Program-made: the position numbers and the translations under genes
Shown: in pieces, positions 2 through 25,728 of the stretch
Layout: each line of letters begins with the position of its first letter
How positions within the stretch are numbered: position 1 is the first letter of the stretch
Virus record (IMG/VR): IMGVR_UViG_3300026114_000153
Span: 1 to 26,315 of that record
Length of the DNA: 26,315 nt
Reading direction: 5' to 3' (one strand)
DNA from: a virus
The notes under the pieces: generated by a model
The model's input: only the letters and a program-made list of their open reading frames with translations
What the model was told of the DNA's origin: nothing
Databases searched by the model: none

Positions 2-355
2 AAACTTAATATTATTTGTGAAAACGATGAAACCGCTGATTCTGGTGAAATTGTAGTCAGCAACTATCAAACGCGTCATTATGATATGTGTCCTACTGCC
101 ACCAAACTATATGATGGCATTGAAGAGCAGGTTGATGATTTAGATTTAGCAGAAAGAACTGCAAAAATGCAAGACGTTCTTTTTTATCTAGAAAAACACA
201 CGGTTGAAGAAATGAAGTCAGCCACGCAGGAAGATGTGATGATGGCTGAAAATCTGGCTGAGCAGATAATGGCAATGGCTGATATGATGAATCTAAAAGA
301 AGAGCACAATTATATTCAAAGTCATGTTGATGCAATAAAAGAAGTGACTAAATAA
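2..355 (+). CDS. Hypothetical protein, 5' end cut by window edge
   Basis: The reading frame is open from base 2 and stops at 355, so the true start lies upstream of the window; an internal ATG at 86 is available but the frame before it reads as ordinary protein (for example CENDETADSGEIVVSNYQ). The visible 117 residues are acidic, largely helical in character and rich in Met, Glu and Asp, with no membrane segment. A histidine-cysteine stretch (RHYDMCPTA) precedes the helical part. The gene is followed after 4 bases by the next one, so the two are probably co-transcribed. I do not recognise a function; small conserved proteins of this kind are common in T4-like marine phages. Confidence 0.6.
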   Translation, partial: KLNIICENDETADSGEIVVSNYQTRHYDMCPTATKLYDGIEEQVDDLDLAERTAKMQDVLFYLEKHTVEEMKSATQEDVMMAENLAEQIMAMADMMNLKEEHNYIQSHVDAIKEVTK

Positions 356-359
356 TATT

Positions 360-1187
360 ATGATTGATCCAATTTATAACGCAATTAACGCCTTGGATGA
401 CATTTCCAATGGCAAAAAAGTAGATAACAAGAAATCCATGAGTGAAGATGGTACAAAAGATATTACTAATATCTTGAATCGTTTTGATACACTCACCGAA
501 GGTAGGGCCACGCAAGAAGCAAGACAAGTCCCAGAGGCAAAACAACTTCCGGCAGATTTTGAGCCTGAAACTATTTCTCCAGTAATCGGTGAACCAGAAA
601 AAGACCATCCCACGAAAGGATATTTTGTTGGTGGAGAAAGTGAATATGATGATAGTGGCAGTCGCGATACAACCGAGGCTGTTAAAAATGCAATCATACG
701 CAGAATAGCCATGCAACATATTGACCTGCTAACCAAGTATGGCCCAGAAGCAGTAATGGACGAGGTTGAAGATTTAGCAAGCACAATGGATGATTTAGAT
801 GAAATTGGTTCTTCTGATGTTTCTGCATTTGTTAAAGAAATAAAAAACAATCTAGAAAGTTCTGAAAATATACAAACTAAAGAAGATGTTGTTTCCGATG
901 AACCTATGAAATTGGGTGATTACCTAGATAACTTAGCCAATACCATTAGTAAAGATGCAGAGTTAAACAAAGCCGAGGTTATGAAAACTGATCCCGGCAG
1001 TATTGGCCCATCAATAAAAACTTATACTACAGATGATGGCCAAGAAATTAAAATTCATGGCAACGAAGATGATGGCTTTCGCATTTCTATTAAAGGAAAA
1101 CCAGCCAAAAGCACATTTTCAGAATTAGATGAAGCAACAATGGCTTGTGAGACGTATATTTCCCGTAAGTTCAATGCTTCTAAATAA
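360..1187 (+). CDS. Conserved acidic phage protein of unknown function
   Basis: This 275-residue acidic protein has three parts: a low-complexity N-terminal third rich in Glu, Asp, Pro and Lys; a helical middle (about residues 106-170) with the pattern IRRIAMQHIDLLTKYGPEAV followed by EIGSSDVSAFVKEI; and a C-terminal part (about 210-275) that reads as small beta strands plus a helix (DDGQEIKIHGNEDDGFRISI). From memory, the middle motif recurs in uncharacterised proteins of marine T4-like phages, but no function is known to me. The start ATG at 360 lies 4 bases after the previous stop and has no clear Shine-Dalgarno sequence, so it is probably translated by coupling. Its stop overlaps the next start by one base (TAATG). 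Confidence 0.65.
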   Translation: MIDPIYNAINALDDISNGKKVDNKKSMSEDGTKDITNILNRFDTLTEGRATQEARQVPEAKQLPADFEPETISPVIGEPEKDHPTKGYFVGGESEYDDSGSRDTTEAVKNAIIRRIAMQHIDLLTKYGPEAVMDEVEDLASTMDDLDEIGSSDVSAFVKEIKNNLESSENIQTKEDVVSDEPMKLGDYLDNLANTISKDAELNKAEVMKTDPGSIGPSIKTYTTDDGQEIKIHGNEDDGFRISIKGKPAKSTFSELDEATMACETYISRKFNASK

Positions 1188-2344
1188 TGGCTGAAAAAAA
1201 AGAATTTATTGATTATGTTGAATTTTACATAACAAACTCTTGCAATTTTAACTGTACTGGGTGCAATAGATTCAATAATTATGCATTCACAGGCCACCAA
1301 CGATGGGCTGATTACAAAGACATATACAGGCAATGGGCTGAAAAAATAGAATTTAATGACTATTATATTCTAGGTGGGGAGCCCATGAGCAATCCCGATT
1401 TGCTAGAGTGGATAACTGGCATAAGAAGTTTGTGGCAGAATACCAACAATGCTGTATTAGTAACAAACGGCAGTTATGAAAAAAAATTTAATAAAGAATT
1501 ATATAATGTCTTAGTTGATACAAATACCAACTTAGAAGTGGGGGTGCATAACATAAATCGCCGAGAACATGTCTTAGAATTAATTTTAGACTTTATTGCA
1601 CACCCGGCTCATATAATAAAAATTCCAGACATAAATTTGACTCCAACATTTGAACACTTGTCAAATTCTAATTACGTTTTCTTTGATGTCAAACACTCTT
1701 CGATACCTGCTAAACCACACGAATTAAAATCTCTGATTGAGTCATATAAATTTTGGGAAACGTTCAACGAGTTTTATAAAATGAACAGGACTGATCTGTG
1801 GCCAGAAGACGTCAAATCAATGAATGATTGGAATAATCTTGCAGATTATATGAAAGACGAATGTTTATCTCGTTATAACTTTAGTCCAGAAATAGAACAA
1901 AATTTCCAACTCGAATATGTTATAATTGACGCAAATAATCTAAAAATAAACATTAATCTAGAAAACTTTTTTCATCAAGGTGCATTAGTAGCACAACCAG
2001 AAAAAAATAGTTTTACTTTGCATGATAGTGATCCGAATATAGCACATGATATCTGCCACACAAAAAATTCACATCATTTTATTAAAGGAAAATTAAATAA
2101 ATGTGGAACATCATTTTTGTTCGATGAATTTGACAAACAGTTTAACCTAGATTTGTCAGAAGAAGATAGAAATTTAATACAAAATGTTCCAGTTGGGACA
2201 GTTGATATGTCTGGCGAGGAATTATCTATTTTTATTGAAAATCTAAAAAATCCAATTCCACAGTGTAAATTTTGTCCGCAAAATTATGAATTTTCAGAAT
2301 TATTTTCTTCATCAAAAAAATCAGTTTTTGGAAAGAAAAAATAA
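1187..2344 (+). CDS. Radical SAM protein with C-terminal SPASM-like cysteines
   Basis: The 385-residue protein carries the radical SAM signature CxxxCxxC at C19, C23 and C26, which in this superfamily binds the 4Fe-4S cluster that cleaves S-adenosylmethionine. A GGEP motif at residues 63-66 is the usual SAM-binding loop after strand 2. The C-terminal third holds more cysteines (DICH, LNKCGTSF and QCKFC near residue 363), a pattern like the SPASM/twitch auxiliary cluster domain. Substrate cannot be read. Radical SAM/SPASM proteins modify peptides or sugars among other substrates. The gene overlaps its upstream neighbour by one base (TAATG), implying coupling. A second, differently arranged radical SAM gene lies at 8466. 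Confidence 0.85.
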   Translation: MAEKKEFIDYVEFYITNSCNFNCTGCNRFNNYAFTGHQRWADYKDIYRQWAEKIEFNDYYILGGEPMSNPDLLEWITGIRSLWQNTNNAVLVTNGSYEKKFNKELYNVLVDTNTNLEVGVHNINRREHVLELILDFIAHPAHIIKIPDINLTPTFEHLSNSNYVFFDVKHSSIPAKPHELKSLIESYKFWETFNEFYKMNRTDLWPEDVKSMNDWNNLADYMKDECLSRYNFSPEIEQNFQLEYVIIDANNLKININLENFFHQGALVAQPEKNSFTLHDSDPNIAHDICHTKNSHHFIKGKLNKCGTSFLFDEFDKQFNLDLSEEDRNLIQNVPVGTVDMSGEELSIFIENLKNPIPQCKFCPQNYEFSELFSSSKKSVFGKKK

Positions 2345-7234: not shown

Positions 7235-8473
7235 ATGTTTTTTTCGATATCCAAAACCAACAATAACGACGAAAGATTTGCCATACAACACTCAGTATTT
7301 GATTTTAAAATTCATTTAGACTCAGGATGGGAAGAAATTAATAAAAATGAAACAACTATATTTTTTAAAGGGTATTGTGATACAGAAAAATTGGAAGAAG
7401 TCGTAAAAGAGTTTATCAATGACAAAACTCCAAAATATACTGGCAATTTTTGTATCATATTAGCTGATAAACATAAAGTAGTTATTACACATGATATTAA
7501 TCGTTCATTTCCATTAAAATATTATGCTAACAATTTATTGACTAACTTGCCGTATTCTGAGAACATAGGAATTGAAGATCATATATGGAGTGATAGTTTT
7601 GTTGAATACAAGAATTCAGGCATCAACAAGACATTTTTAAAAAATTTATATGATATTGATGTATCAAAAAATATCTCACTTGAAGAATGTAGCGACAGCA
7701 TAAAAAACATTCTAATCACAAAAATTGATGGACTTAACCAATTTGTTGATACATCTGGTACTATTAATGTATTCTTATCTGGGGGGATAGATACCAGTAT
7801 GGTATATTCCCTTCTTAAAAAATATTATAATAAAGATAAAGAAATTAATATTATTACAAAAGAATTTTTTGACTTTACAAAATTTACTGTGATGAATATG
7901 GATACCTTGTTGAAGCACCCAAATTTGTGGGGGTACAAATCTTTTCATCACTGGAAAGAAAAAACTCTTTATGCAACTGGTGGTATGGGAGATGAAATAT
8001 TTATGCGGGGGCCAACTACCACTGCGTTATGGTGTGCGTGGAATGATATTAATCTTATAGAAGAATTTGAAAAATTAAAGTATTCATATCACAAAAAATA
8101 TTTTTTACGTGATAAAAATACAAAAATTATAAATTACTACTGGAATAACAGAAAAGAATTACAAAAAGAGTATCCAAAATATTCTGATTTATGTCGGCAA
8201 ATATGCAACATGACGAGCAATGACCATCAGCATTGGCACCTCGAAAATACTATATCTTGGACGCCATTAAAAGATACAGAAATATTAAAAACTATATTAA
8301 AACTGCCAAAAGAAATTATTTTACAACAAATTATTCATGGAATAGTGGATATAAAGATTATTTCAGAATTATGCCCGGGTTTAGAAAAATATATTTGCAC
8401 CCATAAGAACGACAATCAATATAATAATCTCGTAAATTATCAACCATTTCTAGACAAATTAAACGATGCTTGA
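7235..8473 (+). CDS. Asparagine-synthetase-like amide ligase without glutaminase Cys
   Basis: A 412-residue protein of the asparagine synthase (AsnB) superfamily. The ATP pyrophosphatase loop SGGIDTS is at 182-188, preceded by the strand INVFL, and the second signature TGGMGDEIF at 248-256 corresponds to the family GGxGxDE motif. The N-terminal 130 residues resemble a reduced glutaminase domain (GNFCIILADKHKVVITHD), but residue 2 is Phe, not the catalytic Cys of class II amidotransferases, so ammonia cannot come from glutamine by the usual route. Family members without Cys2 include beta-lactam synthetases and lasso-peptide cyclases, which join a carboxylate to an internal or external amine. 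Asparagine synthetase in the strict sense (about 550 residues) is therefore unlikely. It overlaps the following radical SAM gene by 8 bases. Confidence 0.8.
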   Translation: MFFSISKTNNNDERFAIQHSVFDFKIHLDSGWEEINKNETTIFFKGYCDTEKLEEVVKEFINDKTPKYTGNFCIILADKHKVVITHDINRSFPLKYYANNLLTNLPYSENIGIEDHIWSDSFVEYKNSGINKTFLKNLYDIDVSKNISLEECSDSIKNILITKIDGLNQFVDTSGTINVFLSGGIDTSMVYSLLKKYYNKDKEINIITKEFFDFTKFTVMNMDTLLKHPNLWGYKSFHHWKEKTLYATGGMGDEIFMRGPTTTALWCAWNDINLIEEFEKLKYSYHKKYFLRDKNTKIINYYWNNRKELQKEYPKYSDLCRQICNMTSNDHQHWHLENTISWTPLKDTEILKTILKLPKEIILQQIIHGIVDIKIISELCPGLEKYICTHKNDNQYNNLVNYQPFLDKLNDA

Positions 8474-9620
8474 ATGTAAATTTATAACAAATGGCATGGC
8501 AATACGATACGATGGGGTAATAAGACCATGTTGTGCATGGACAGTTGATGAAAAGTGGAAAAAAGAAAATCATTACAGTAAAATCACTGACATTGAAAAC
8601 TGGCATAATTCCCCACAAGTATTAGAAAAACGAAAAATGTTAGAGCGAGGGGAGTGGCCTACCAATTGTGTCAAATGTCAACATGCAGAGGAATCTGGCA
8701 GAGATGATAGTATGCGTGGCAATGGAAATAATGCGTACTATGATTATAGTGAAAAAGACATTACAATAGAAATACGCCCGGGAAGTGTATGTAACTTTGC
8801 TTGCCAAAGCTGCTGGCCTGACGCTAGTACTCGTGTAAAACACTTTATGGACAAGGCTGGATTAATAGATAAAAATGAAGTTGATGCAGCATCAATAACA
8901 GATTTTGAATTTCTCACACCAGTCTCACACAGAATTAAAGATATTGTTTTATTAGGCGGAGAACCATTTTACGATAAAAATTGTTTAAAATTTTTGAATT
9001 GGGCTACAGAAAACATTAATGCCAACATTATGATTTTTACTAATGGGCTATATATTGATTATAATTTTATTGAAAAATACAAATCAAAAATTACTTTAAT
9101 ATTTAGCATTGATGCAATCGGAAGACCCGCAGATTACATAAGATACGGCAGTCAATGGGAAAAAGTAAAAGAAAACTATTATAAAACAAGAAAATATGAA
9201 AATACTGAAGTAAGAGTAAACATAACCACTTCAGCATATAACTTTTGTTATCTAGAAACATTATTAGACTTTTTTAAAAATGACTGGCCTGACTTAATAA
9301 CATTTGGGTACGCAAGTGAACCACATCTTCAACCAGATGTAATTCCGATTGAAAAAAGATCAGTTATTGTTGAAAGTTTAGAAAGAATACCTGAGAAGAT
9401 TTGGAAATCAAATATACACAAAGACCAACAGCACAACACATCTAATTCTATTAATAGTATTATAAACAGTCTAAAAACTAATAGTTTTAATATTGAACAA
9501 TATGATTATTTTTGTTCTTATATAGAAAAAATGGACAAGGTCAAAAAAATCAAAATAAAAGATTATTGCCCAGAACTGTGTGATATTTTATTTCACCACA
9601 ATACAAAATTCATAAATTAA
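8466..9620 (+). CDS. Radical SAM protein with N-terminal twitch/SPASM half
   Basis: The 384-residue protein has an unusual order: an N-terminal auxiliary-cluster region with C4, C22, C23, C68 and C71 (pattern GVIRPCCAW and NCVKCQ), then the radical SAM core with C109, C113 and C116 (VCNFACQSC) and GGEP at 164-167. From memory this arrangement matches phage proteins annotated as twitch-domain radical SAM enzymes. Further cysteines near the C-terminus (FCSY, DYCPELC) may complete a second cluster. The reaction and substrate are unknown. It starts inside the asparagine-synthetase-like gene, so both are probably translated together, and the sliding clamp gene follows after 24 bases. Confidence 0.85.
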   Translation: MLECKFITNGMAIRYDGVIRPCCAWTVDEKWKKENHYSKITDIENWHNSPQVLEKRKMLERGEWPTNCVKCQHAEESGRDDSMRGNGNNAYYDYSEKDITIEIRPGSVCNFACQSCWPDASTRVKHFMDKAGLIDKNEVDAASITDFEFLTPVSHRIKDIVLLGGEPFYDKNCLKFLNWATENINANIMIFTNGLYIDYNFIEKYKSKITLIFSIDAIGRPADYIRYGSQWEKVKENYYKTRKYENTEVRVNITTSAYNFCYLETLLDFFKNDWPDLITFGYASEPHLQPDVIPIEKRSVIVESLERIPEKIWKSNIHKDQQHNTSNSINSIINSLKTNSFNIEQYDYFCSYIEKMDKVKKIKIKDYCPELCDILFHHNTKFIN

Positions 9621-11042: not shown

Positions 11043-11234
11043 ATGAGTGAAGCAGTAGATAAAATCTTTGATGATTTAGACAATTTTAAAGACTTTTGCC
11101 GAGACTATGGATATCGGTACAATGAAAAAGATCTTTATAATTGGAAAAGTTATGCATGGCAACAGTATAACAAATTTCTTAATGGCAAAAATGTAAAAAA
11201 CATGTGGGAACAAGACAGCAAACGCTTTGGCTGA
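11043..11234 (+). CDS. Small conserved hypothetical protein
   Basis: A 63-residue aromatic-rich soluble protein (DLDNFKDFCRDYGYRYNEKD then YAWQQYNKFLNGK). GAGG at 11034-11037 supports the ATG. The pattern looks like small proteins I recall from T4-like marine phages, but with no known role. Its stop overlaps the beginning of the epimerase gene by 8 bases. Confidence 0.6.
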   Translation: MSEAVDKIFDDLDNFKDFCRDYGYRYNEKDLYNWKSYAWQQYNKFLNGKNVKNMWEQDSKRFG

Positions 11235-12213
11235 TCAAAAGTCTGATATATTGTCGGTTGTTGTAACAGGTGCTGCTGGTTATATCGGCGGCCAGACTGT
11301 CTTAGAATTTTCTGATGCAGGATATGATGTCGTAGGGATAGATATTAAACAACCGCGAAAATCTGTATTACATGCAATGTCAAGATTTGTGACAGTAAAT
11401 TTTTCTACAGATCGTGCAACTGACGAAATATCTAAATCTAATCCAATAGCCATTATTCACTGTGCAGGAAGCAGCCTTGTTGCACCTAGTGTTGATGATC
11501 CAGAGTCATATTACACAAATAACTTTATCAAAACAAAGCGACTGCTGGATAACCTGTTAGAAACCAGATCTTGTTCTAAGATTATTACCAGTTCAAGTGC
11601 CGCTGTTTATGGAAATCCTATTCAAACCCCTATATCTGAAAACTCTCCATGTGCCCCAATATCTCCATACGGAGAGAGCAAACTCATGGTAGATATGTTG
11701 CTATCGGCTTACCACAAAGCATATGGTATAGATTATGTTGCCTTTAGATACTTTAATGCTTGTGGTGCTGACCCACAAAACCGCCACGGTCAAGATTCAG
11801 ATGCAACACATATCATTGCTCGTATCACCAATAGTTTAAAAAACGATAAACAATTTATCCTTAATGGAAAAAACTATGATACGCCTGATGGAACGTGTAT
11901 AAGAGATTATATTCATGTTTCAGATATTGCACGTGCACACAGACTTGCAGTTGAAAATGAGACAGAATCTCGACCATATAATCTTGGCAGTAGCACAGGA
12001 TTGAGTAATCTTGATATTATTAATCAAGCACAAAAAACTATTGACAAAGATTTACTTTGGAAATATGGTGAAGAACGCGATGGCGACCCAGACATACTCA
12101 CTGCTGATGCAGAGGCATTTAGGCAACAAACTGGGTGGGGACCAACTTGGGGGATTGATGACATTATAATCCACGCTTGGAATTGGCAAACACAAAGCAT
12201 AGGCAATGCCTAA
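11227..12213 (+). CDS. galE: UDP-glucose 4-epimerase (GalE family)
   Basis: This 328-residue protein is an extended short-chain dehydrogenase of the GalE type (E. coli GalE has 338 residues), which interconverts UDP-glucose and UDP-galactose or their N-acetyl forms. It has the NAD-binding TGAAGYIG loop at 14-21, D39 after strand 2, the SSSAAVYG motif near 122-129 and the catalytic YGESK (Y148, K152). Typical GalE segments follow: FRYFNACGADP, DGTCIRDYIHVSDIA and YNLGSSTGLSN. No in-frame ATG exists near the N-terminus; TTG at 11227 overlapping the previous stop is taken, with TTG at 11251 as an alternative. It would feed glycan synthesis together with the glycosyltransferase at 15839. Confidence 0.92.
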   Translation: MADQKSDILSVVVTGAAGYIGGQTVLEFSDAGYDVVGIDIKQPRKSVLHAMSRFVTVNFSTDRATDEISKSNPIAIIHCAGSSLVAPSVDDPESYYTNNFIKTKRLLDNLLETRSCSKIITSSSAAVYGNPIQTPISENSPCAPISPYGESKLMVDMLLSAYHKAYGIDYVAFRYFNACGADPQNRHGQDSDATHIIARITNSLKNDKQFILNGKNYDTPDGTCIRDYIHVSDIARAHRLAVENETESRPYNLGSSTGLSNLDIINQAQKTIDKDLLWKYGEERDGDPDILTADAEAFRQQTGWGPTWGIDDIIIHAWNWQTQSIGNA

Positions 12214-12706: not shown

Positions 12707-13327
12707 ATGAGCTTTGACACCCTTTTTAAATTTGAAGAAAAATTAGCACAATATACTGGAGCACCATATGCAATAGCAACTGACTGCTGCACACATGCTA
12801 TTGAATTGTGCATGCTTTATGACAATGTGAAAGTCACACAGTTTACTTCCCGAACCTATCTCTCTGTTCCAATGACTCTACATCGTTTGGGTATAAAATT
12901 TGATATGTTTGATCATATATGGACAGGAGAATATAAATTTGAAAATACACGTATATGGGATTCCGCCAGAAGACTAGAGCCTAGAATGTATCGTAAGGGT
13001 CAAATGCAATGTTTGAGTTTTGGTTATTCCAAGCCCTTACATCTAGGCAGATGTGGTGCTATACTATTAGATGATAAGGCTGCATACCATCTAATCAGCG
13101 AAATGCGTGCTGATGGTAGAGCACTTGAAAAAAGCCCATGGTCATTACAAAAACATTTTTACCTTGGTTATCATTATTGTCCAACCCTAGAAACATGTCA
13201 GTTGGGCATAGATAAGTTAGACAGGGTTGTCCCGCAATGCCAAGTTGGCAGTTACCCAGACTGCCGACAATTCATGTTCTCAGAACGCAGTAAAAATCTA
13301 CATTCTTCACAATTAAGCTTATTCTAA
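12707..13327 (+). CDS. Minimal DegT/DnrJ/EryC1-type aminotransferase-like protein
   Basis: The 206-residue protein reads as a reduced member of the PLP-dependent sugar aminotransferase family, usually 370-390 residues. It begins at the family's 'E-x-x-A-x-Y-x-G-A-P-Y-A-I-A-T' region, where the usual SGT is replaced by TDCCTHA. The PLP-pyridine acid appears in WDSARRLE (D85), and the Schiff-base lysine fits K109 in SFGYSKPLHLGRCGAIL. The C-terminal small domain is missing, yet the frame is intact. Such short DegT-like proteins are, from memory, found in marine phages. Full-length relatives aminate nucleotide-linked keto sugars, which would suit the neighbouring epimerase; whether this small form is active is uncertain. 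Confidence 0.65.
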   Translation: MSFDTLFKFEEKLAQYTGAPYAIATDCCTHAIELCMLYDNVKVTQFTSRTYLSVPMTLHRLGIKFDMFDHIWTGEYKFENTRIWDSARRLEPRMYRKGQMQCLSFGYSKPLHLGRCGAILLDDKAAYHLISEMRADGRALEKSPWSLQKHFYLGYHYCPTLETCQLGIDKLDRVVPQCQVGSYPDCRQFMFSERSKNLHSSQLSLF

Positions 13328-13337
13328 TTTTTTATTC

Positions 13338-13366
13338 TTGACAACAATAATGTCAGGATGTATATT
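13338..13366 (+). promoter_or_regulatory. Sigma70-type promoter for the lipoprotein gene
   Basis: TTGACA at 13338-13343 and TATATT at 13361-13366 are spaced by exactly 17 bases. The predicted transcript would start near 13373, 25 bases before the lipoprotein ATG at 13398. The presence of a private host-type promoter supports independent expression of this gene. Confidence 0.75.
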
Positions 13367-13397
13367 AATTGGGTGTTCAACTTTAAACTCAATTAAA

Positions 13398-15797
13398 ATG
13401 AAAAATTATACACCAATACTTTTCGTCTCATTATCATTGCTAACCGCCTGTGGTGGTGGCGGGGGAGCATCTGGACCAACAGTCAGCAATAATGTTCCCT
13501 CTGAACGAACAGTTATTATCGGAGATTATACGCCTGTTGTAATTGAGACATATGACCCGGTTGAGGGTGCTATTACCGCTACACCCGACGATGAAATCTA
13601 TACACAGGATTTAAACAAATCTGGTGCAGAGGAAGTGGTCATTGCGGGCCGCAGTAGCCAGTCGTTTGATATGGAGACCGATGACATCAACACGTGGCAG
13701 AACTACGAAATGCAAGTCTATGGCTGGAACACCGGAGACTTTAGCAATGAGACGGAGTCATGGTTTGAAGGAACTGAAAATAGTATCTTAGGCACTGAGC
13801 CTAGCGTTCATTTTGCTGACTTTGATGGTGATGGCCATGTAGATATGGCTGTTCCACATGGTACAGACATGGACCTTTATGGGCCGAGTCATGTCTATTT
13901 TAACACTGGTTCAAGTTCTTTTGAGCGAGTTCAAATAGATCACAAGGATACATGGGCCCATGATGCGGCGGTTGCCGACTTTAACGGAGATGGGTTTGAT
14001 GATTTTCTCGTAGGAAGTTTTAGGGGAAACATGTCACTTTCGCTCGGAGCAGCGGATCGAACTTTTGAGATGTATCAATCTGATAATTCCCCCACCGGGG
14101 TTGGAATTGCAGTTGGTGATTTTTTAGGTGACGACACTGTTAGTATTATCACAACCGCAGGGGGGAACAAACAAGAATTATATACGTGGAATATTGAAAA
14201 TGATGAGTTAGTGTTAACTCGTGAATCTGTTCTTCCCGATGTTCGATTTGAACTCTCTAAATGGGATGACGAGCGAGCGGCACAAGAGGACGAGTATTCC
14301 ACTATCAGGGCTATCACGTTTGATTTTGATAATAATGGCATCGATGACGTTGTTACTATTAGTACTCTTGATAAAGATGATAATGTTCATGGTTATACCG
14401 AGGTTCAATTCCTTCAAAACGACGGTTCTGGGAATTTTACTGACGTAACTGATAATATTTTAAAAGATTTTGATACTAATCAACTTGCCCCGTACAATCC
14501 CGTATTGGTCGATGTCAATGATGATGGATTGATGGATATTCTTTTAAGTAGTATTGCATTTGCAGAAGAACCATCGACTTCAATTCTTGTCCAAGAGGCA
14601 GGAGGCACATTTAGGGAGCAATTTGTCGATGAATTTTCGGCGTATAATGACACTCTCAATAGTTTAGGCGACGACAACTTGGTCGCTGACCCAGTACATT
14701 CTATAGTTTCCGGCCCTGATAATACTCGTTACTTGGTGAGTGTTGGGCTAGTTACGGACCAAGAATCAGGAGATTATAAAAATCGTGTTTTCTTATCGGA
14801 AATTGGTAATGAAGGGACAATCACAGTCTCAAATACGGTTTCTGCACTAAAAGCCCAGTGGCCATGGATAACAGATTCACAGGCTCAAGAGATTCTTTCT
14901 CTTACATCCTCGGGAATAGTGGAGGGAATGCCTGTCATTGATTACTATAAAGCGATGTCTCCTGTTGGAAACTTGTCCTTAGTAAGCAAAGGTGGAAAGA
15001 AATTTTACACTATTGCGGGTCACGTCTCTGGTGTTAAATTAGGTAATAACGTCCCTGTCTTGGCCACAGATAGTGTCGGCAGAACCTTCTCTGTCAACTT
15101 AGATAGGTCTGTGTATACAGCAGCAACCAGTTGGGATACATATACTAGCCACATTGATCAATCCTTTGTAGATTACAATGTGCGGTCGTCTAACCTAGTG
15201 GGTGGTAAAAATCTTTTATTGGGTGGGGTATCTCTGCACCAAGAGAATGCTGATTTAAATAATTATAGCCTCTCGCTGCCAACTGTAAAAATTAGCGAAA
15301 ACGCATTTTTGACAGCATCATTTACCGAGGTAGACTTTAGCCCATGGTTAAGTATGTCTGGCATATGGGGAGAAGTAAATAAATCAAATATTACAGAAGG
15401 AACTCTAACTGTAAAAGAAGGCAATTGGATAGCAAATACTGGAATCATGCATACCCAAACAAGTATTAATCCGGGATTAATCACGTCTGTTAATGACATT
15501 TATGCAGCGTGGGGGGATTTTGGATGGCGACACAAAAATAACAAATTTGGAGTATACGGTGGTATTGATCCAGTTGTTGTTTCTGGCTCCGTTAATGTCT
15601 CATTGCCAGAGGCCGTAGATAATAATGGCAATGTATCGTATTCCAATAATGAAATTTCATTGTTTAGTGTTAACAATTACTATATTAGAACGCATGCCGA
15701 GCATAGCTTTTCCGATGGTTTGAGTGTAATAGCTAGTGGAATTGTTAGGCAAAATAATAAAAATAATCTCGTGGTTAACGTAAACTGGGAATTTTAA
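13398..15797 (+). CDS. FG-GAP repeat lipoprotein with beta-rich C-terminus
   Basis: The 799-residue protein begins with a lipoprotein signal peptide: a hydrophobic stretch then LLTAC (lipobox, C18) followed by five Gly, so it should be lipidated and exported. Calcium-binding FG-GAP/VCBS-type repeats follow, with FADFDGDGHVDM near 139-150, VADFNGDGFDDFLVG near 192-206, FDFDNNGIDDVV near 314 and VDVNDDGLMDILLSS near 370. The last 250 residues are rich in alternating hydrophobics, Gly and aromatics and end WEF, as outer-membrane beta-barrel or autotransporter-like domains do. ATG 13398 is chosen because an upstream TTG at 13338 is part of the promoter. GC counted on lines at 13801, 14881 and 15061 is 45-47%, against 28-35% in neighbours, suggesting recent acquisition. 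Role unknown: adhesin, receptor masking or exclusion are possibilities. Confidence 0.85.
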   Translation: MKNYTPILFVSLSLLTACGGGGGASGPTVSNNVPSERTVIIGDYTPVVIETYDPVEGAITATPDDEIYTQDLNKSGAEEVVIAGRSSQSFDMETDDINTWQNYEMQVYGWNTGDFSNETESWFEGTENSILGTEPSVHFADFDGDGHVDMAVPHGTDMDLYGPSHVYFNTGSSSFERVQIDHKDTWAHDAAVADFNGDGFDDFLVGSFRGNMSLSLGAADRTFEMYQSDNSPTGVGIAVGDFLGDDTVSIITTAGGNKQELYTWNIENDELVLTRESVLPDVRFELSKWDDERAAQEDEYSTIRAITFDFDNNGIDDVVTISTLDKDDNVHGYTEVQFLQNDGSGNFTDVTDNILKDFDTNQLAPYNPVLVDVNDDGLMDILLSSIAFAEEPSTSILVQEAGGTFREQFVDEFSAYNDTLNSLGDDNLVADPVHSIVSGPDNTRYLVSVGLVTDQESGDYKNRVFLSEIGNEGTITVSNTVSALKAQWPWITDSQAQEILSLTSSGIVEGMPVIDYYKAMSPVGNLSLVSKGGKKFYTIAGHVSGVKLGNNVPVLATDSVGRTFSVNLDRSVYTAATSWDTYTSHIDQSFVDYNVRSSNLVGGKNLLLGGVSLHQENADLNNYSLSLPTVKISENAFLTASFTEVDFSPWLSMSGIWGEVNKSNITEGTLTVKEGNWIANTGIMHTQTSINPGLITSVNDIYAAWGDFGWRHKNNKFGVYGGIDPVVVSGSVNVSLPEAVDNNGNVSYSNNEISLFSVNNYYIRTHAEHSFSDGLSVIASGIVRQNNKNNLVVNVNWEF

Positions 15798-17462: not shown

Positions 17463-18004
17463 AGATACTGTTTGACTAAGTCTAATTTTTTATCATACGA
17501 TTCAATCCAGCCAGTAAAAGAACTCATATCTATTTCACTTGCCTCATCTTCTTTGAACTTATATTTCACTGCTGGATCTTTCTGAGTAATAGTTTTGTGT
17601 TCTTCTTTTAATTTTTTAAGAACTTCAACGAGATCAGGCGTTAGATGTTTTTCTAATGCTTCAAGAATCTTTTTGTATTGTGGTGATTCTGTGGGCTTAG
17701 GATCTTTGGATATTTCTAAAATGACATTTTTTGTTTCAATGACACGAGTAAAAACAGCATCTTCAACGTCAAATAAAAATGCAACGTCTTGTCGTGTCTG
17801 CGTTTTTGTGGTATCTTGCATTTGTTTTAGTTGGGCTTTTAAATTATCTACTGTTTGCAAATCATCTACAAGTCGATCAAACTTTGGTCCCAGTTTGCTA
17901 TCAATTTGAGCAGTGATTTTTGTGTCATCACGATCATATTGTTTAACACCGGGAACACCAGCCGCTTCAACAATATTCATAAAATTTTTAATGTCATCAA
18001 TCAT
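17459..18004 (-). CDS. Hypothetical helical protein, only minus-strand gene
   Basis: The 181-residue protein is almost entirely helical and charged, with a heptad-like region (LVDDLQTVDNLKAQLKQMQD) and a middle segment (RQDVAFLFDVEDAVFTRVIE) that looks conserved in style. No signal peptide or membrane segment is visible. It is the only gene read on the minus strand here. Its stop codon overlaps the stop of 16692-17462 by two bases, with no terminator hairpin between, so the two transcripts would converge and overlap. AATAAATA on the minus strand (18017 to 18010) lies only 5 bases before the ATG, too close to leave a leader. Function unknown. Confidence 0.65.
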   Translation of the reverse strand: MIDDIKNFMNIVEAAGVPGVKQYDRDDTKITAQIDSKLGPKFDRLVDDLQTVDNLKAQLKQMQDTTKTQTRQDVAFLFDVEDAVFTRVIETKNVILEISKDPKPTESPQYKKILEALEKHLTPDLVEVLKKLKEEHKTITQKDPAVKYKFKEDEASEIDMSSFTGWIESYDKKLDLVKQYL

Positions 18005-18035
18005 AATGATATTTATTACAGAGAGGAAATAAAAT

Positions 18036-21041: not shown

Positions 21042-21265
21042 GTTACCCGGCAATCTACCGTTTTGTTGATAGAGTCAGGGGTGTCTCACCAACTGCTCGT
21101 GATTTTTCAATGTCTGTTGCTGATGCAAAAGCATTGCATTCTGAAGTCACCAAATTACTTTTGACGCTAGAACATATGCGTGACTCTGAAAATAAAAATA
21201 ATACAGACTCCGCTGCTACATTTAACATTGGTGAAAAAATAGAACTTAAAGGTGGAAGTTTCTAG
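21038..21265 (+). CDS. Small conserved hypothetical protein, GTG start
   Basis: A 75-residue protein starting with GTG, overlapping the previous stop (GTGA). It reads IYRFVDRVRGVSPTARDFSM, then a helix rich in Leu and Glu (DAKALHSEVTKLLLTLEHMRD) and ends IELKGGSF. From memory this resembles a small conserved protein in T4-like cyanophages. Size and location near rnh would allow a late-transcription coactivator (gp33-like) role, but no sequence evidence supports that. Function unknown. Confidence 0.6.
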   Translation: MSYPAIYRFVDRVRGVSPTARDFSMSVADAKALHSEVTKLLLTLEHMRDSENKNNTDSAATFNIGEKIELKGGSF

Positions 21266-21284
21266 ATAACCCGCAGTCCGTGCC

Positions 21285-21331
21285 CCTTTAGTTAACACCT
21301 ATGATAAATAATGGTAGTTAAATTAAAGGAG
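21285..21331 (+). promoter_or_regulatory. Late promoter inside hairpin that covers the ribosome binding site
   Basis: An inverted repeat pairs 21285-21299 with 21313-21329 (CCTTTA with TAAAGG, then a G-T pair, TT with AA, AAC with GTT and ACC with GGT; two single-base bulges, A21316 and A21320). The 13-base loop 21300-21312 contains GATAAATA (21303-21310), a T4-type late promoter box. The 3' arm contains AAAGGAG (21325-21331), the ribosome binding site for the TTG start at 21340. Transcripts starting upstream would fold and hide the site; transcripts from the late box would begin near 21316 and lack the 5' arm. Confidence 0.65.
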
Positions 21332-21339
21332 TCACAAAG

Positions 21340-21648
21340 TTGTCACGCCCAAAGCCAGAAATACTGCTAGAGAAAACAGACAAAGCAACATATAAAACTG
21401 AGCAGATTCTTGCTGCTGATGGTATATGGGCAGTATTTTTTGATGGCAAGCCAATCAATCTAAAAACCGGGAATCAACTAGTGCAGTATCCCGGGCCAAA
21501 GTATGTCAAGGTTTCATTTTCAAACCAAGGACATGCAATTAACTTGGCAAAGAAACTCAACTCAAAATACAAAACTGATAAATTTACAGTGGTATTCCTA
21601 AATCAAGGTGAGCAAGTTTATCCTGAGCCACCCAAATCAAAAAAGTAA
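21340..21648 (+). CDS. Conserved phage hypothetical protein, TTG start
   Basis: A 102-residue basic protein starting with TTG; AAAGGAG at 21325-21331, eight bases before, decides the start. Pattern: SRPKPEILLEKTDKATYKTEQ at the N-terminus, VFFDGKPINLKTG in the middle and YVKVSFSNQGHAINLAKKLN. From memory the pattern is well conserved in T4-like marine phages but has no assigned role. It looks like a small alpha-beta fold with many Lys near the C-terminus, compatible with nucleic-acid binding, which is only inference. Expression appears to be controlled by the hairpin and late box upstream. Confidence 0.7.
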   Translation: MSRPKPEILLEKTDKATYKTEQILAADGIWAVFFDGKPINLKTGNQLVQYPGPKYVKVSFSNQGHAINLAKKLNSKYKTDKFTVVFLNQGEQVYPEPPKSKK

Positions 21649-21994: not shown

Positions 21995-22030
21995 TTTTGG
22001 CTCCGTTTAACCGGATAAGAACAATCAACA

Positions 22031-22038
22031 AATAAATA
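22031..22038 (+). promoter_or_regulatory. Candidate T4-type late promoter (AATAAATA)
   Basis: AATAAATA ends 22 bases before the ATG at 22061 and fits the T4 late box in seven of eight positions. The predicted leader would be short, with only a weak AAGAA ribosome binding site. Only a 6-base complementarity (TTTTGG 21995-22000 with CCAAAA 22045-22050) flanks it, so the hairpin arrangement seen at 21285 and 22768 is not convincing here. Confidence 0.5.
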
Positions 22039-22060
22039 TTTTCACCAAAAAAGAATAATA

Positions 22061-22771
22061 ATGAAAATAAGTATTGAACAAACCCCACGCCAGATCATGT
22101 CTCCATACGTACTTAATCATGTTGATTCTGTTAGTATCGTACATCTTCCAAAAAATCGTTTATCAGAAACACTGCATACCATAGCGGCTTTACAAAAACA
22201 AAACACAAATATTAAAATTATTCCACATATTGCTGCTCGTAGTTTAAAGAATAAAGATGAATTATTTTCAAACTGCGACAAGTTTGCAGAAATGGGTATT
22301 AAAGATATTCTTATAATAGGCGGTGGTACAAAGACTGGTCATTGTTATAGTAGTGCCTTTGGTGTCTATGATGATATCCTCAACAAAAATTATAAGTTCA
22401 ATATGATGTGTGGAGTATATCCACAAAATGAAACTAGTAATGAAGTTGACGATAACAAGTACTCAAAATTTACACGTGGCATAACACAAGTATGTTTAAG
22501 TCGCCGACTTTTAAATCAATTTGATAACAGAACTATTGTAGGTGTTCCAAGCAATTGTTCAGCAAAAGAATTGATACGGTTTATTAAATTATGTGGTATT
22601 ACTCGTTCTATTCGCGAAGCCATCCCAAATATCGTTGGGGCAAAATATATTTCATTTTCTGGTTTCAATACTGCCAAATTCGTTAGTGACCTATCAGGTG
22701 ACCGCGACATCCATATCTTTAATTTCGGCAATCTAGAAAAAACTGTCCGCTCTCTACAAAAATTATTATAA
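22061..22771 (+). CDS. Divergent methylenetetrahydrofolate reductase-like protein
   Basis: The 236-residue protein aligns by eye with the MTHFR TIM barrel (E. coli MetF is about 296 residues). ISIEQTPRQ (3-11) corresponds to the family start 'SFEFFPPK', so E6 fits the catalytic glutamate. Then come VSIVHLPKNRLSETLHTIAAL, IIPHIAARSLKNKDELF with GIKDILIIGGG (79-89) in place of the family 'H-x-x-x-x..GI-x-x-x-L-x-L-R-G-D', a strand GVYPQNE (118-124) in place of 'AAYPExH', and GITQVCLS in place of the 'xITQ-aromatic' strand. The family's Asp after 'RG' is replaced by Gly. Known members bind FAD and reduce 5,10-methylene- to 5-methyl-tetrahydrofolate. Activity and true substrate are uncertain given divergence and shortness. 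A late-type box precedes it. Confidence 0.72.
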   Translation: MKISIEQTPRQIMSPYVLNHVDSVSIVHLPKNRLSETLHTIAALQKQNTNIKIIPHIAARSLKNKDELFSNCDKFAEMGIKDILIIGGGTKTGHCYSSAFGVYDDILNKNYKFNMMCGVYPQNETSNEVDDNKYSKFTRGITQVCLSRRLLNQFDNRTIVGVPSNCSAKELIRFIKLCGITRSIREAIPNIVGAKYISFSGFNTAKFVSDLSGDRDIHIFNFGNLEKTVRSLQKLL

Positions 22772-22815
22772 CCGTAGTTTTCTTATCTAAATACTTTTAA
22801 GAAAACACAGGTTAT
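22768..22815 (+). promoter_or_regulatory. Late promoter inside an 18-base inverted repeat covering the ribosome binding site
   Basis: Arm 1 (22768-22785) ATAACCGTAGTTTTCTTA and arm 2 (22798-22815) TAAGAAAACACAGGTTAT are complementary in 15 of 18 positions, with one symmetrical 3-by-3 mismatch. The 12-base loop contains TCTAAATA (22786-22793), a late-promoter box. AGG at 22809-22811, the only Shine-Dalgarno-like element before ATG 22821, lies in arm 2. A transcript starting about 6 bases after the box would begin at arm 2 and lack arm 1. There is no T-run after arm 2, so it is not a normal terminator. Confidence 0.7.
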
Positions 22816-22820
22816 TATTA

Positions 22821-23033
22821 ATGAAAAAGTTAAGAGATATAATTTTCAAATCTGCCGAAGCCCACTTTATTGGTCACATTAAAAAGCATCGTGCTAATGT
22901 AGAAATTTTGCTAGAAAATCCAGTTGGCACTGGAGAAGGTGCTGGTGATATTTTAGAAGAAATTGAAAAAGAGTTGGCTGAAATTGCTGATTACGATGAC
23001 AAACTAGAGATGCTAAACAAATACTTTACTTAA
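22821..23033 (+). CDS. Small conserved helical protein
   Basis: A 70-residue acidic protein, helical, with the pattern MKKLRDIIFKSAEAHFIGHI, HRANVEILLENP and ILEEIEKELAEIADYDDKLE. From memory, this pattern (KHRANVEI-LLENP and EKELxxIAxYxDKLxxL) recurs in small proteins of T4-like phages of unknown role. The start is ATG 22821 with a weak AGG 9 bases before it inside the hairpin arm. It is preceded by a hairpin-embedded late promoter and followed by three stem-loops, so it may be a monocistronic late gene. Confidence 0.7.
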   Translation: MKKLRDIIFKSAEAHFIGHIKKHRANVEILLENPVGTGEGAGDILEEIEKELAEIADYDDKLEMLNKYFT

Positions 23034-23049
23034 AATAAAAACGAGCATC

Positions 23050-23105
23050 TGATTACCACTGGTAATCACAACGCCAACTGTAGTTATTGCTCCTAGCTAC
23101 AGTTG
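23050..23105 (+). other. Two stem-loops after 23033
   Basis: TGATTACC with GGTAATCA (23050-23057 and 23061-23068, 3-base loop) and CAACTGTAG with CTACAGTTG (23075-23083 and 23097-23105, followed by TTTT at 23106-23109). Together with the terminator at 23113 they make three perfect stems in about 105 bases. They may be tandem terminators or a small structured 3' RNA. Confidence 0.6.
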
Positions 23106-23112
23106 TTTTCCC

Positions 23113-23154
23113 AGAGGTATTGTACATCCGCTCCCGTGCAATACCTCTTTTTTT
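23113..23154 (+). terminator. Rho-independent terminator
   Basis: AGAGGTATTG (23113-23122) pairs perfectly with CAATACCTCT (23139-23148), extendable by a G-T and an A-T pair, and the 3' side continues into seven T (23148-23154). This is a strong intrinsic terminator closing the transcript of the gene ending at 23033. Confidence 0.88.
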
Positions 23155-23162
23155 ATGTCAGC

Positions 23163-23170
23163 AATAAATA
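23163..23170 (+). promoter_or_regulatory. Candidate T4-type late promoter (AATAAATA)
   Basis: AATAAATA ends 19 bases before ATG 23190 and directly follows a strong terminator, as expected for the start of a new unit. A weak stem of CTCTTTTTTT (23145-23154) with GGAAAACAGAG (23172-23182, one bulge) could place the box in its loop and the AGAG ribosome binding site in its 3' arm, but that stem is AT-rich and competes with the terminator. Confidence 0.55.
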
Positions 23171-23189
23171 CGGAAAACAGAGAACCGTA

Positions 23190-23741
23190 ATGCACCATTT
23201 TAAGTCTGACATTTTTAGATACAGCGTCTTTTCAATGGTGCTATTCTATGCTGCAATAGTAATTGCCTACGAATATACTCAATATCAAATAAAGTCCGTA
23301 ATGGTTGAACACATTGAATGGATTACTGAAAACACATCACTTGAATACAATGGAGAAACACTGCCGTCTGTAAAGCGTCGTACTGCAGATGAAATGGCAG
23401 CAATGTTTTATGGGTTAAATGAAGATCCGAATAACCATAGTGAAAATGATAGAAAAGTAGTAAAGAACAGCAACGTCAGTGCATTGTATAATTTTCGTAC
23501 AAATACTCTATACTTTAAACCAGACTTTAGATTTGCCGATTGGGAAACAACACACATTTTAGTTCATGAATTAGTTCATTTTCTTCAAATGACCAACAAT
23601 AGATATGGTGACAACCCTTGTATGCCACGATTAGAAGGGTATGCTTATATGATACAAACTCAATGGCAAAAAGAACATGAGCACCCCGCTGACATACCAA
23701 ATGGCTTACGCATAATGACGTTAATTACAGCAGGTTGCTAG
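23190..23741 (+). CDS. Membrane-anchored zinc metalloprotease-like protein
   Basis: The 183-residue protein has a short N-terminal cytoplasmic segment, one hydrophobic segment (about residues 12-28, VFSMVLFYAAIVIAYEY) and a soluble domain. HILVHELVHFLQ contains the zinc-binding HExxH (H126, E127, H130), and RLEGYAYMIQTQW 19 residues later supplies a likely third ligand (E149), as in gluzincins. The fold would place the catalytic domain outside the cytoplasm. It also has NFRTNTLYF before the helix, as expected for an edge strand. ATG 23190 is chosen because the upstream frame runs through the terminator. Envelope degradation, lysis or protein processing are possible roles; substrate unknown. 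It resembles small HExxH proteins of unknown function rather than any named phage protease. Confidence 0.72.
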   Translation: MHHFKSDIFRYSVFSMVLFYAAIVIAYEYTQYQIKSVMVEHIEWITENTSLEYNGETLPSVKRRTADEMAAMFYGLNEDPNNHSENDRKVVKNSNVSALYNFRTNTLYFKPDFRFADWETTHILVHELVHFLQMTNNRYGDNPCMPRLEGYAYMIQTQWQKEHEHPADIPNGLRIMTLITAGC

Positions 23742-23805
23742 ACGGGTTGACGACGCACCTTAAATTGATTACACTATAATTATTATTAGTAGATAAGAGT
23801 ATATC

Positions 23806-24441: not shown

Positions 24442-24553
24442 ACGAAAACCAGAAAAAATGACCGAAACCGAGTGGAATCGTTCAGTTGGTTATGGACGAC
24501 CACCACGAGACAATAAATCTGAAAAGGAAAAAGAGGAAAAAGATATTAAATGA
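24434..24553 (+). CDS. Small ORF of 39 residues linking two genes
   Basis: ATG 24434 overlaps the last codons of the previous gene and the stop TGA (24551-24553) overlaps the flavoprotein ATG at 24550 (ATGA). The product is highly charged (TKRKPEKMTETEWNRSVGYG then RPPRDNKSEKEKEEKDIK). The exact overlaps at both ends suggest a real coupled gene, which is too short for standard gene finding. Function unknown. Confidence 0.5.
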   Translation: MTKRKPEKMTETEWNRSVGYGRPPRDNKSEKEKEEKDIK

Positions 24554-25728
24554 CTATCACTGTAATTGGTGCTGGTATTACTGGCATTACTACAGCATAT
24601 TATCTTGCACGGTCAGGCTATGATGTGCTCGTTGTCGACCAAGAACGATATCCGGGAATGGGAACATCGTATGCCAACGGTGGGCAATTAAGTGCGTCAA
24701 ATGCAGAGGTGTGGAATAGTTGGCATAATGTAGCCAAGGGTGCTAAGTGGATGTTTCGTAAAGATGCCCCGCTAAAAATAAATCCAGCACCATCACTACA
24801 CAAGTATTCTTGGTTTGCAAAGTTTTTATCTAATATTCCCAACCGAGAAAGAAATACTTTCAAAACGTGCGAGATGGCAATTGATGCACACGACCTGTAT
24901 AAAAATATTGCAGAACGTGAAGGTATAGATTTTGATTGTGTAAAAGAAGGCATACTACACATATACTCCAATGATAAAGACATTCAACATGCACGCGAAA
25001 CTAATGTCATTTATCAATCTGCTGGACTAGAACGTCGTGAAGTCACTTCCGAAGAAGTTTTTAATATTGAACCACAATTATCAAATTCCAGACGCTCTAT
25101 AGTTGGTGGGTTTTATACAGAAGAAGATTTTACAGGTGACATTCACAAGTTCTGTGCAAACCTTGCACGTTGTTTAGAAACCCGATATGCCGTTCAGTTT
25201 GTCCAAGAAACGGTAGATAAGGAATCACTAGAACTATTTCAAAAACAAGGTCCCGTAATTGTTTGTGCTGGTACCGGAAGTCGTGACATTGCAAAACTTG
25301 TTGGTGATAACTTGCCAATCTACCCCGTAAAAGGATATTCTATTACTGTCAACGAGCCGGGCAATGGTCCTTGGGTGAGTCTACTTGATGATGAAACAAA
25401 AATTGTAAGTGCTAGGTTGGGTGATTCTAGATTTAGAGCGGCTGGTACTGCAGAATTTAACGGATATAACCGCGATATTCTAAAGCATCGTATTCAACCA
25501 TTAGTTGATTGGACAGAAGACTTATTTCCACAGATGAATACAGAAGATGTAGTACCATGGGCTGGGCTTCGTCCAATGACACCAAATATGATGCCTATTG
25601 TTAGACAAAGTAAAAAAAATCCGAAAGTCTGGTATAACACTGGACACGGCCATCTTGGTTGGACACTCTCTGCATATACTGCCATTGACATTGCAAACAA
25701 AATACTCCATAATGATGCAAACAAATAA
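24550..25728 (+). CDS. dadA: D-amino acid dehydrogenase-like flavoprotein (DadA family)
   Basis: The 392-residue protein matches E. coli DadA (432 residues) along its length: ITVIGAGITGITTAYYLA with the FAD-binding GxGxxG at 7-12 and D30 after strand 2; SYANGGQLSAS corresponding to DadA's SAANAGQISPG; KWMFRKDAPL; the middle PVKGYSITV (DadA PLKGYSLTI); LRPMTPNMMPIV and NTGHGHLGWTLSA near the C-terminus. The bacterial enzyme oxidises D-amino acids to keto acids, passing electrons to the membrane quinone pool. The D-alanine role in bacteria makes peptidoglycan recycling one possibility. Related oxidoreductases act on sarcosine or glycine, so substrate is uncertain. ATGA overlap shows coupling to the small gene before it. 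Confidence 0.85.
   Translation: MTITVIGAGITGITTAYYLARSGYDVLVVDQERYPGMGTSYANGGQLSASNAEVWNSWHNVAKGAKWMFRKDAPLKINPAPSLHKYSWFAKFLSNIPNRERNTFKTCEMAIDAHDLYKNIAEREGIDFDCVKEGILHIYSNDKDIQHARETNVIYQSAGLERREVTSEEVFNIEPQLSNSRRSIVGGFYTEEDFTGDIHKFCANLARCLETRYAVQFVQETVDKESLELFQKQGPVIVCAGTGSRDIAKLVGDNLPIYPVKGYSITVNEPGNGPWVSLLDDETKIVSARLGDSRFRAAGTAEFNGYNRDILKHRIQPLVDWTEDLFPQMNTEDVVPWAGLRPMTPNMMPIVRQSKKNPKVWYNTGHGHLGWTLSAYTAIDIANKILHNDANK

What the first reader, a model, noticed from the sequence alone, without database searches (positions are those of the whole stretch)
22768..22815. Late promoter box in the loop of an 18-base inverted repeat whose 3' arm holds the ribosome binding site
Arms 22768-22785 and 22798-22815 match in 15 of 18 positions around a loop with TCTAAATA. 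The AGG before ATG 22821 lies in the 3' arm. Read-through RNA from the MTHFR-like gene would hide it; RNA starting at the late box would begin at the arm and be free. T4 uses this logic for gene e, soc, gene 49 and I-TevI mRNA. The exact position of the box in the loop is hard to explain by chance.
Basis: partly seen in the sequence, partly recalled or inferred. Interest (0 to 1): 0.85.

Follow-up and report, generated by a model that had tools for sequence, protein, structure and literature searches.

The report
Late promoter inside ribosome-site-hiding RNA hairpin
A marine relative of phage T4 has a late-gene start signal inside an RNA hairpin that would hide the ribosome site of a small gene on read-through RNA but not on RNA started at the signal, a known T4 trick found here in a new phage group, though this particular hairpin is missing from the only comparable relative.

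Summary
The hairpin is real: arms 22768-22785/22798-22815 match 15/18, box TCTAAATA lies in the 12-nt loop and GG of the Shine-Dalgarno in the 3' arm. Folding z=-3.2; the box-spanning pairing is reached by about 1 in 10,000 shuffles. Predicted cost of opening the translation start falls from 10.5 kcal/mol (read-through RNA) to 2.5 (RNA from 22799).

In the only informative relative (G001, same gene order) the box and leader are conserved, but the 5' arm is not: five pairs break, one is compensated, and no RBS is hidden.

The logic itself recurs. Window gene 21340 has such a hairpin, and its G001 ortholog has a different one doing the same. RBS-hiding by pre-start sequence occurs at 8/28 boxed genes versus 6/94 others (p=0.0035), as in T4, where I-TevI, I-TevII, segB and e are recovered. 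Rivals are chance and translational coupling: a ribosome on the upstream stop codon (22769-22771), inside the 5' arm, would open the hairpin.

By-product: many TAAATA boxes in this phage and in HTVC008M lie exactly 11 nt before ATG without a Shine-Dalgarno, predicting leaderless late mRNAs; T4, Atu_ph07 and Phosso lack this.

Verdict: new member of a known kind, lineage-specific.

The parts
22061..22771 (+). MTHFR-like gene upstream; its stop codon TAA 22769-22771 lies inside the hairpin's 5' arm
   Evidence: ORF; PF02219 hit of the L003 ortholog E 3.7e-4, below Pfam's cut-off; PDB profile hit E 5e-6; 64% identical ortholog
22768..22785 (+). 5' arm of the inverted repeat, upstream of the predicted late start; diverged in the ortholog
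22786..22793 (+). late promoter box TCTAAATA (core TAAATA 22788-22793) in the hairpin loop; conserved in L003
22798..22815 (+). 3' arm; contains the Shine-Dalgarno AGG 22809-22811; predicted late RNA start at 22799
   Evidence: start position inferred from T4 geometry
22821..23033 (+). 70-aa gene of family phrog_1811 (function unknown, shared with cyanophages and pelagiphages), predicted helical hairpin; the gene whose translation start is hidden
21284..21337 (+). second hairpin of the same logic: 5' arm ends just before late box GATAAATA (21303-21310), SD AGGAG in the 3' arm, start TTG 21340; the G001 ortholog has a different hairpin with the same effect
21340..21648 (+). 102-aa gene controlled by the second hairpin/box
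   Evidence: ortholog in L003 1517-1825
22033..22038 (+). late box TAAATA of the MTHFR-like gene itself (ATG 28 nt downstream); weak hiding only

Best explanation
A T4-type late-promoter/RNA-hairpin switch. RNA that enters from upstream contains both arms, folds into a 17-pair hairpin and buries the GG of the Shine-Dalgarno of the 70-aa gene (phrog_1811). Late RNA polymerase with a gp55-type sigma starts at about 22799, after the box in the loop, so late RNA lacks the 5' arm and its Shine-Dalgarno is open. The gene would therefore be translated mainly from its own late transcript. Shown by computation: box, geometry, stability and the predicted change in accessibility, plus genome-wide enrichment of such arrangements at boxed genes. 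Inferred: the start site, the use of the box by a gp55-type sigma, and actual repression in the cell. The hairpin is probably a lineage-specific acquisition, since the ortholog keeps the box and leader but not the hairpin.
For: Hairpin z -3.2; box-in-loop pairing p 1e-4; opening cost 10.5 -> 2.5 kcal/mol, p 0.007, stable for any upstream length of 40-300 nt. The same test recovers the known T4 cases by position and length: segB, I-TevI, I-TevII, e. Boxed genes show it in 8/28 vs 6/94 unboxed (Fisher 0.0035; G001 alone 6/21 vs 3/70, 0.004; T4 9/30 vs 7/70, 0.016). Gene 21340 has it in both phages with different pairings (10.6 -> 4.0 and 13.8 -> 3.0 kcal/mol), which looks like selection on the function rather than on the sequence. 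gp55 homologs occur in the nearest named relatives, Phosso and Atu_ph07.
Against: The ortholog in G001 has lost or never had the hairpin: 5 broken pairs, 1 compensatory, gain 0, p 0.99. Only two independent sequences exist (L002 is the same phage). A ribosome at the upstream stop would open the hairpin (10.7 -> about 3 kcal/mol), so translated read-through RNA need not be silent. gp55 was not found in G001 or the window, both fragments. The rank test of z over all boxed against unboxed genes was not significant (p 0.17); only the tail is enriched. No transcript data.
Confidence: 0.58

Rival explanations
1. Translational coupling: the hairpin ties translation of the 70-aa gene to translation of the MTHFR-like gene. 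A ribosome terminating at 22769-22771 covers the 5' arm, opens the hairpin and lets the next ribosome load at 22809. The late box then adds an uncoupled transcript.
For: Stop codon lies inside the 5' arm; blocking a ribosome footprint drops the opening cost from 10.7 to about 3 kcal/mol, equal to late RNA.
Against: Not conserved in G001, where the stop position is identical but no hairpin exists. At the second hairpin (21284-21337) the upstream stop, 21263-21265, is too far away to be covered.
Confidence: 0.2
2. Chance: an AT-rich intergenic stretch that happens to pair; the conserved elements are only the late box and the leader with its ribosome site.
For: 5' arm diverges freely in G001 while box and leader are kept; about 6% of unboxed genes reach the same p threshold; the finding was picked from a 26-kb scan.
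Against: p about 1e-4 for the box-in-loop pairing; top z of 28 boxed genes; second, independent case 1.5 kb upstream whose function is kept in the relative.
Confidence: 0.18
3. DNA operator: the inverted repeat is a binding site of a dimeric repressor over the late promoter, as I-TevI represses its own late promoter.
For: Palindrome centred on the promoter; T4 precedent for a repressor over a late promoter (PMC2988022).
Against: 5' half not conserved; no second copy found: the 16-nt loop/arm core occurs once in the window and the leader pattern once per related contig. The product is a predicted helical hairpin without recognised DNA-binding relatives.
Confidence: 0.04

Closest known systems
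T4 gene e, I-TevI, I-TevII, I-TevIII, segB and phage Aeh1 mobE leader hairpins (PMC3014915, PMC2988022)
   Same: Late TATAAATA-type box in or beside the 5' arm of a hairpin that hides the Shine-Dalgarno; late RNA lacks the 5' arm; gene lies downstream of other genes of the same strand. My accessibility test scores four T4 cases in the same range (gains 10.7-12.9 kcal/mol, here 8.0).
   Different: Different phage lineage (polymerase nearest Phosso/Atu_ph07 jumbo phages); different gene (phrog_1811, not lysozyme or a homing endonuclease); upstream stop codon inside the 5' arm; hairpin not kept in the one relative.
T4 late promoters (gp55/gp33/gp45)
   Same: TAAATA core, strand-specific enrichment upstream of genes
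   Different: First bases vary (TCTAAATA here; T4 has TATAAATA). A large class in this phage lies 11 nt before ATG, not seen in T4.

Membership tests
T4-type late-promoter/RBS-hairpin switch | Hairpin in read-through RNA that pairs the Shine-Dalgarno or start codon | tested here: met
T4-type late-promoter/RBS-hairpin switch | T4-type late box placed so that late RNA lacks the 5' arm | tested here: met
   Box 22786-22793; predicted start 22799; opening cost falls to 2.5 kcal/mol. The start itself is not mapped.
T4-type late-promoter/RBS-hairpin switch | Arms maintained by covariation in relatives (supporting, not strictly required: gene e lacks the structure in Aeh1, 44RR, 25, 31) | tested here: not met
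   5 broken, 2 wobble, 1 compensatory of 8 changed hairpin pairs in G001
T4-type late-promoter/RBS-hairpin switch | Early/middle transcripts read through; protein made only late | not testable with these tools
   No RNA or protein data; no excess of sigma-70-like matches over shuffles (30 vs 29.1)
gp55-dependent late promoter | TAAATA-type box enriched on the sense strand upstream of genes | tested here: met
gp55-dependent late promoter | gp55 homolog in the genome | tested here: inconclusive
   Absent from G001 and the window, which are fragments; present in Phosso, Atu_ph07 and the other nine named phages searched

The most novel reading that the evidence does not exclude
In this marine T4-superfamily lineage the late promoter doubles as a translation switch in two ways: for some genes the box sits in or next to a hairpin that hides the ribosome site on read-through RNA, and for a second large class the box sits exactly 11 nt before ATG, so that late mRNAs are leaderless and start at AUG. 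Late structural genes (baseplate wedge, head) would then be translated by leaderless initiation. HTVC008M of Pelagibacter shows the same geometry.
Probability: 0.45. Interest if true: 0.7.

Novelty: new member of a known kind. Interest (0 to 1): 0.45.

Why it matters
It extends the T4 late-promoter/hairpin logic, known from a few lysis and homing-endonuclease genes, to an uncultured marine jumbo-type lineage, and gives a genome-wide test showing that the arrangement is enriched at late boxes rather than anecdotal. It also suggests that such hairpins turn over quickly while the function can be kept (gene 21340: two different hairpins, same predicted effect). The by-product, predicted leaderless late mRNAs in this phage and in the isolate HTVC008M, is directly testable by 5'-end sequencing.

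Tried and rejected
Terminator: no U-run after the stem and an AU-rich stem, so rejected. Known RNA family: nothing above gathering score at 22000-23800. A hidden long-range hairpin in the ortholog: opening cost stays 2-5.5 kcal/mol for 40-300 nt of upstream RNA. More relatives: two protein-based scans, a profile scan and a scan for the conserved leader found only G001 and G002 with this gene order; no similar record among named phages by megablast, so covariation could not be tested on more than two independent sequences. First hairpin screen required the box to be unpaired and missed the G001 134210 case, whose stem includes part of the box; replaced by the upstream-versus-leader test. Function of the 70-aa protein: no Pfam hit, phrog_1811 of unknown function, confident helical-hairpin model (pLDDT 86.7) but no PDB match with E below 0.001.

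Full report
WHAT IS THERE. The arms 22768-22785 and 22798-22815 match 15 of 18; the loop 22786-22797 holds TCTAAATA; the Shine-Dalgarno AGG (22809-22811) is in the 3' arm, 9 nt before ATG 22821. The region folds at -18.9 kcal/mol, z -3.2. Requiring the box to be unpaired, the pairing of the two flanks is matched by 1 in 10,000 shuffles.

CONTEXT. The window is a 26-kb virus fragment whose DNA polymerase is nearest to jumbo phages Phosso and Atu_ph07 (49% and 47% identity). The upstream gene is MTHFR-like; the downstream 70-aa gene is phrog_1811, shared with cyanophages and pelagiphages and modelled as a helical hairpin. TAAATA is the most strand-specific 6-mer upstream of genes in the window plus the 194-kb relative G001 (61 vs 14), so the box is a T4-type late box. 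gp55 itself was not found in G001, a fragment, but is present in all eleven named phages searched.

THE RELATIVE. Two other contigs carry the locus. L002/G002 is nearly identical and adds nothing. L003/G001 has the same gene order, a 64% identical MTHFR-like protein and a 90% identical 70-aa protein. Its intergenic region keeps the box and leader almost unchanged, but the 13 bases between the upstream stop and the box have diverged. Of the 8 hairpin pairs that changed, 5 are broken, 2 become G-U and 1 is compensated. Its fold is no better than shuffled (z +0.49) and upstream RNA does not hide the ribosome site (2.4 vs 2.4 kcal/mol). So selection is visible on the promoter and leader but not on this hairpin.

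IS THE LOGIC REAL IN THIS PHAGE? I computed the cost of opening the translation start in read-through RNA and in RNA begun at box+11, against shuffled upstream sequence. Four known T4 cases, identified by position and protein length, give gains of 10.7-12.9 kcal/mol and top the T4 list. The finding gives 8.0 (p 0.007). The gene at 21340 gives 6.6 in the window, and its G001 ortholog gives 10.8 through a wholly different stem. Over all genes with a box 20-48 nt before the start, 8/28 reach p<=0.05 against 6/94 genes without a box (Fisher 0.0035); T4 gives 9/30 against 7/70 (0.016). The whole-distribution rank test is not significant for this phage (p 0.17), so a minority of genes carries the effect. 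Limits: gene starts are my own calls, shuffles were 60 per gene, two of the 28 boxed genes are orthologs of others in the set, and start sites are inferred from T4 geometry (box about one helical turn upstream, PMC2988020; the exact +1 at box+11 is from my own knowledge of T4).

MECHANISM. Most likely a T4-type switch: read-through RNA hides the site, late RNA from 22799 does not. If a terminating ribosome masks 22755 to about 22780, the opening cost falls from 10.7 to about 3 kcal/mol. So translated read-through RNA could still express the gene by coupling; sequestration would bite mainly on untranslated or slowly translated RNA. The upstream gene also has a late box at 22033, so some read-through RNA is itself late.

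LEADERLESS CLASS. While placing the box I found that the distance from TAAATA to ATG is bimodal. In G001 15-16 sites lie at exactly 11 nt (0.54 expected per offset, Poisson 5e-17; HTVC008M 12, 0.63 expected, 4e-12), and 27 of 134 at 11-13; permuted 6-mers average 2%. T4, Phosso and Atu_ph07 show about 2%, i.e. no excess. With the T4 start position, RNA would begin at the A of ATG. None of 25 such G001 genes has a Shine-Dalgarno, against 11 of 22 in the leader class. In HTVC008M all eight d=11 sites inside the stretch I viewed (6-32 kb) are annotated CDS starts, among them csgF, head closure, tail tube cap, baseplate wedge, tape measure and DNA end protector. In G001 such genes include baseplate wedge and head proteins. 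I found no report of leaderless T4-type late mRNAs in the searched library, which is not the whole literature.

COMPARISON. Even gene e lacks the structure in several relatives, so absence in G001 is not decisive. I rate the hairpin a new member of a known kind, lineage-specific, moderately interesting.

Noticed in passing
window 349-362 (+), 18002-18015 (-); G001 e.g. 113073, 131014, 191564; HTVC008M 12 sites: TAAATA exactly 11 nt before ATG with no Shine-Dalgarno: predicted leaderless late mRNAs. Both window sites are conserved in G001; no excess in T4, Phosso and Atu_ph07.
   Followed up: yes
window 21284-21340; G001 134202-134250: A second late-box hairpin hiding the start of a 102-aa gene; the ortholog has a different hairpin with the same predicted effect.
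   Followed up: yes
window 23031-23165; L003 3211-3340: Three consecutive hairpins after the 70-aa gene, conserved in G001 with 10 pairs changed on both sides. Loops of hairpins 2 and 3 both hold GCTCC; the last is followed by a T run in the window (terminator-like). A covariance model finds no other copy in about 0.9 Mb of related phages. Small RNA or double terminator, unexplained.
   Followed up: partly
G001 28237, 42414, 80260, 22158: Further late boxes with predicted hairpins hiding the ribosome site in read-through RNA.
   Followed up: partly
window 1187-2344, 8466-9620, 11227-12213, 12707-13327, 24550-25728: Host-like enzymes: two radical SAM proteins, a sugar epimerase/dehydratase, a DegT aminotransferase fragment and a DAO-type FAD oxidoreductase.
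   Followed up: no
window 13338-15797: About 800-aa FG-GAP repeat protein whose N-terminus looks like a lipoprotein signal (LTACGG) (signal by eye).
   Followed up: no
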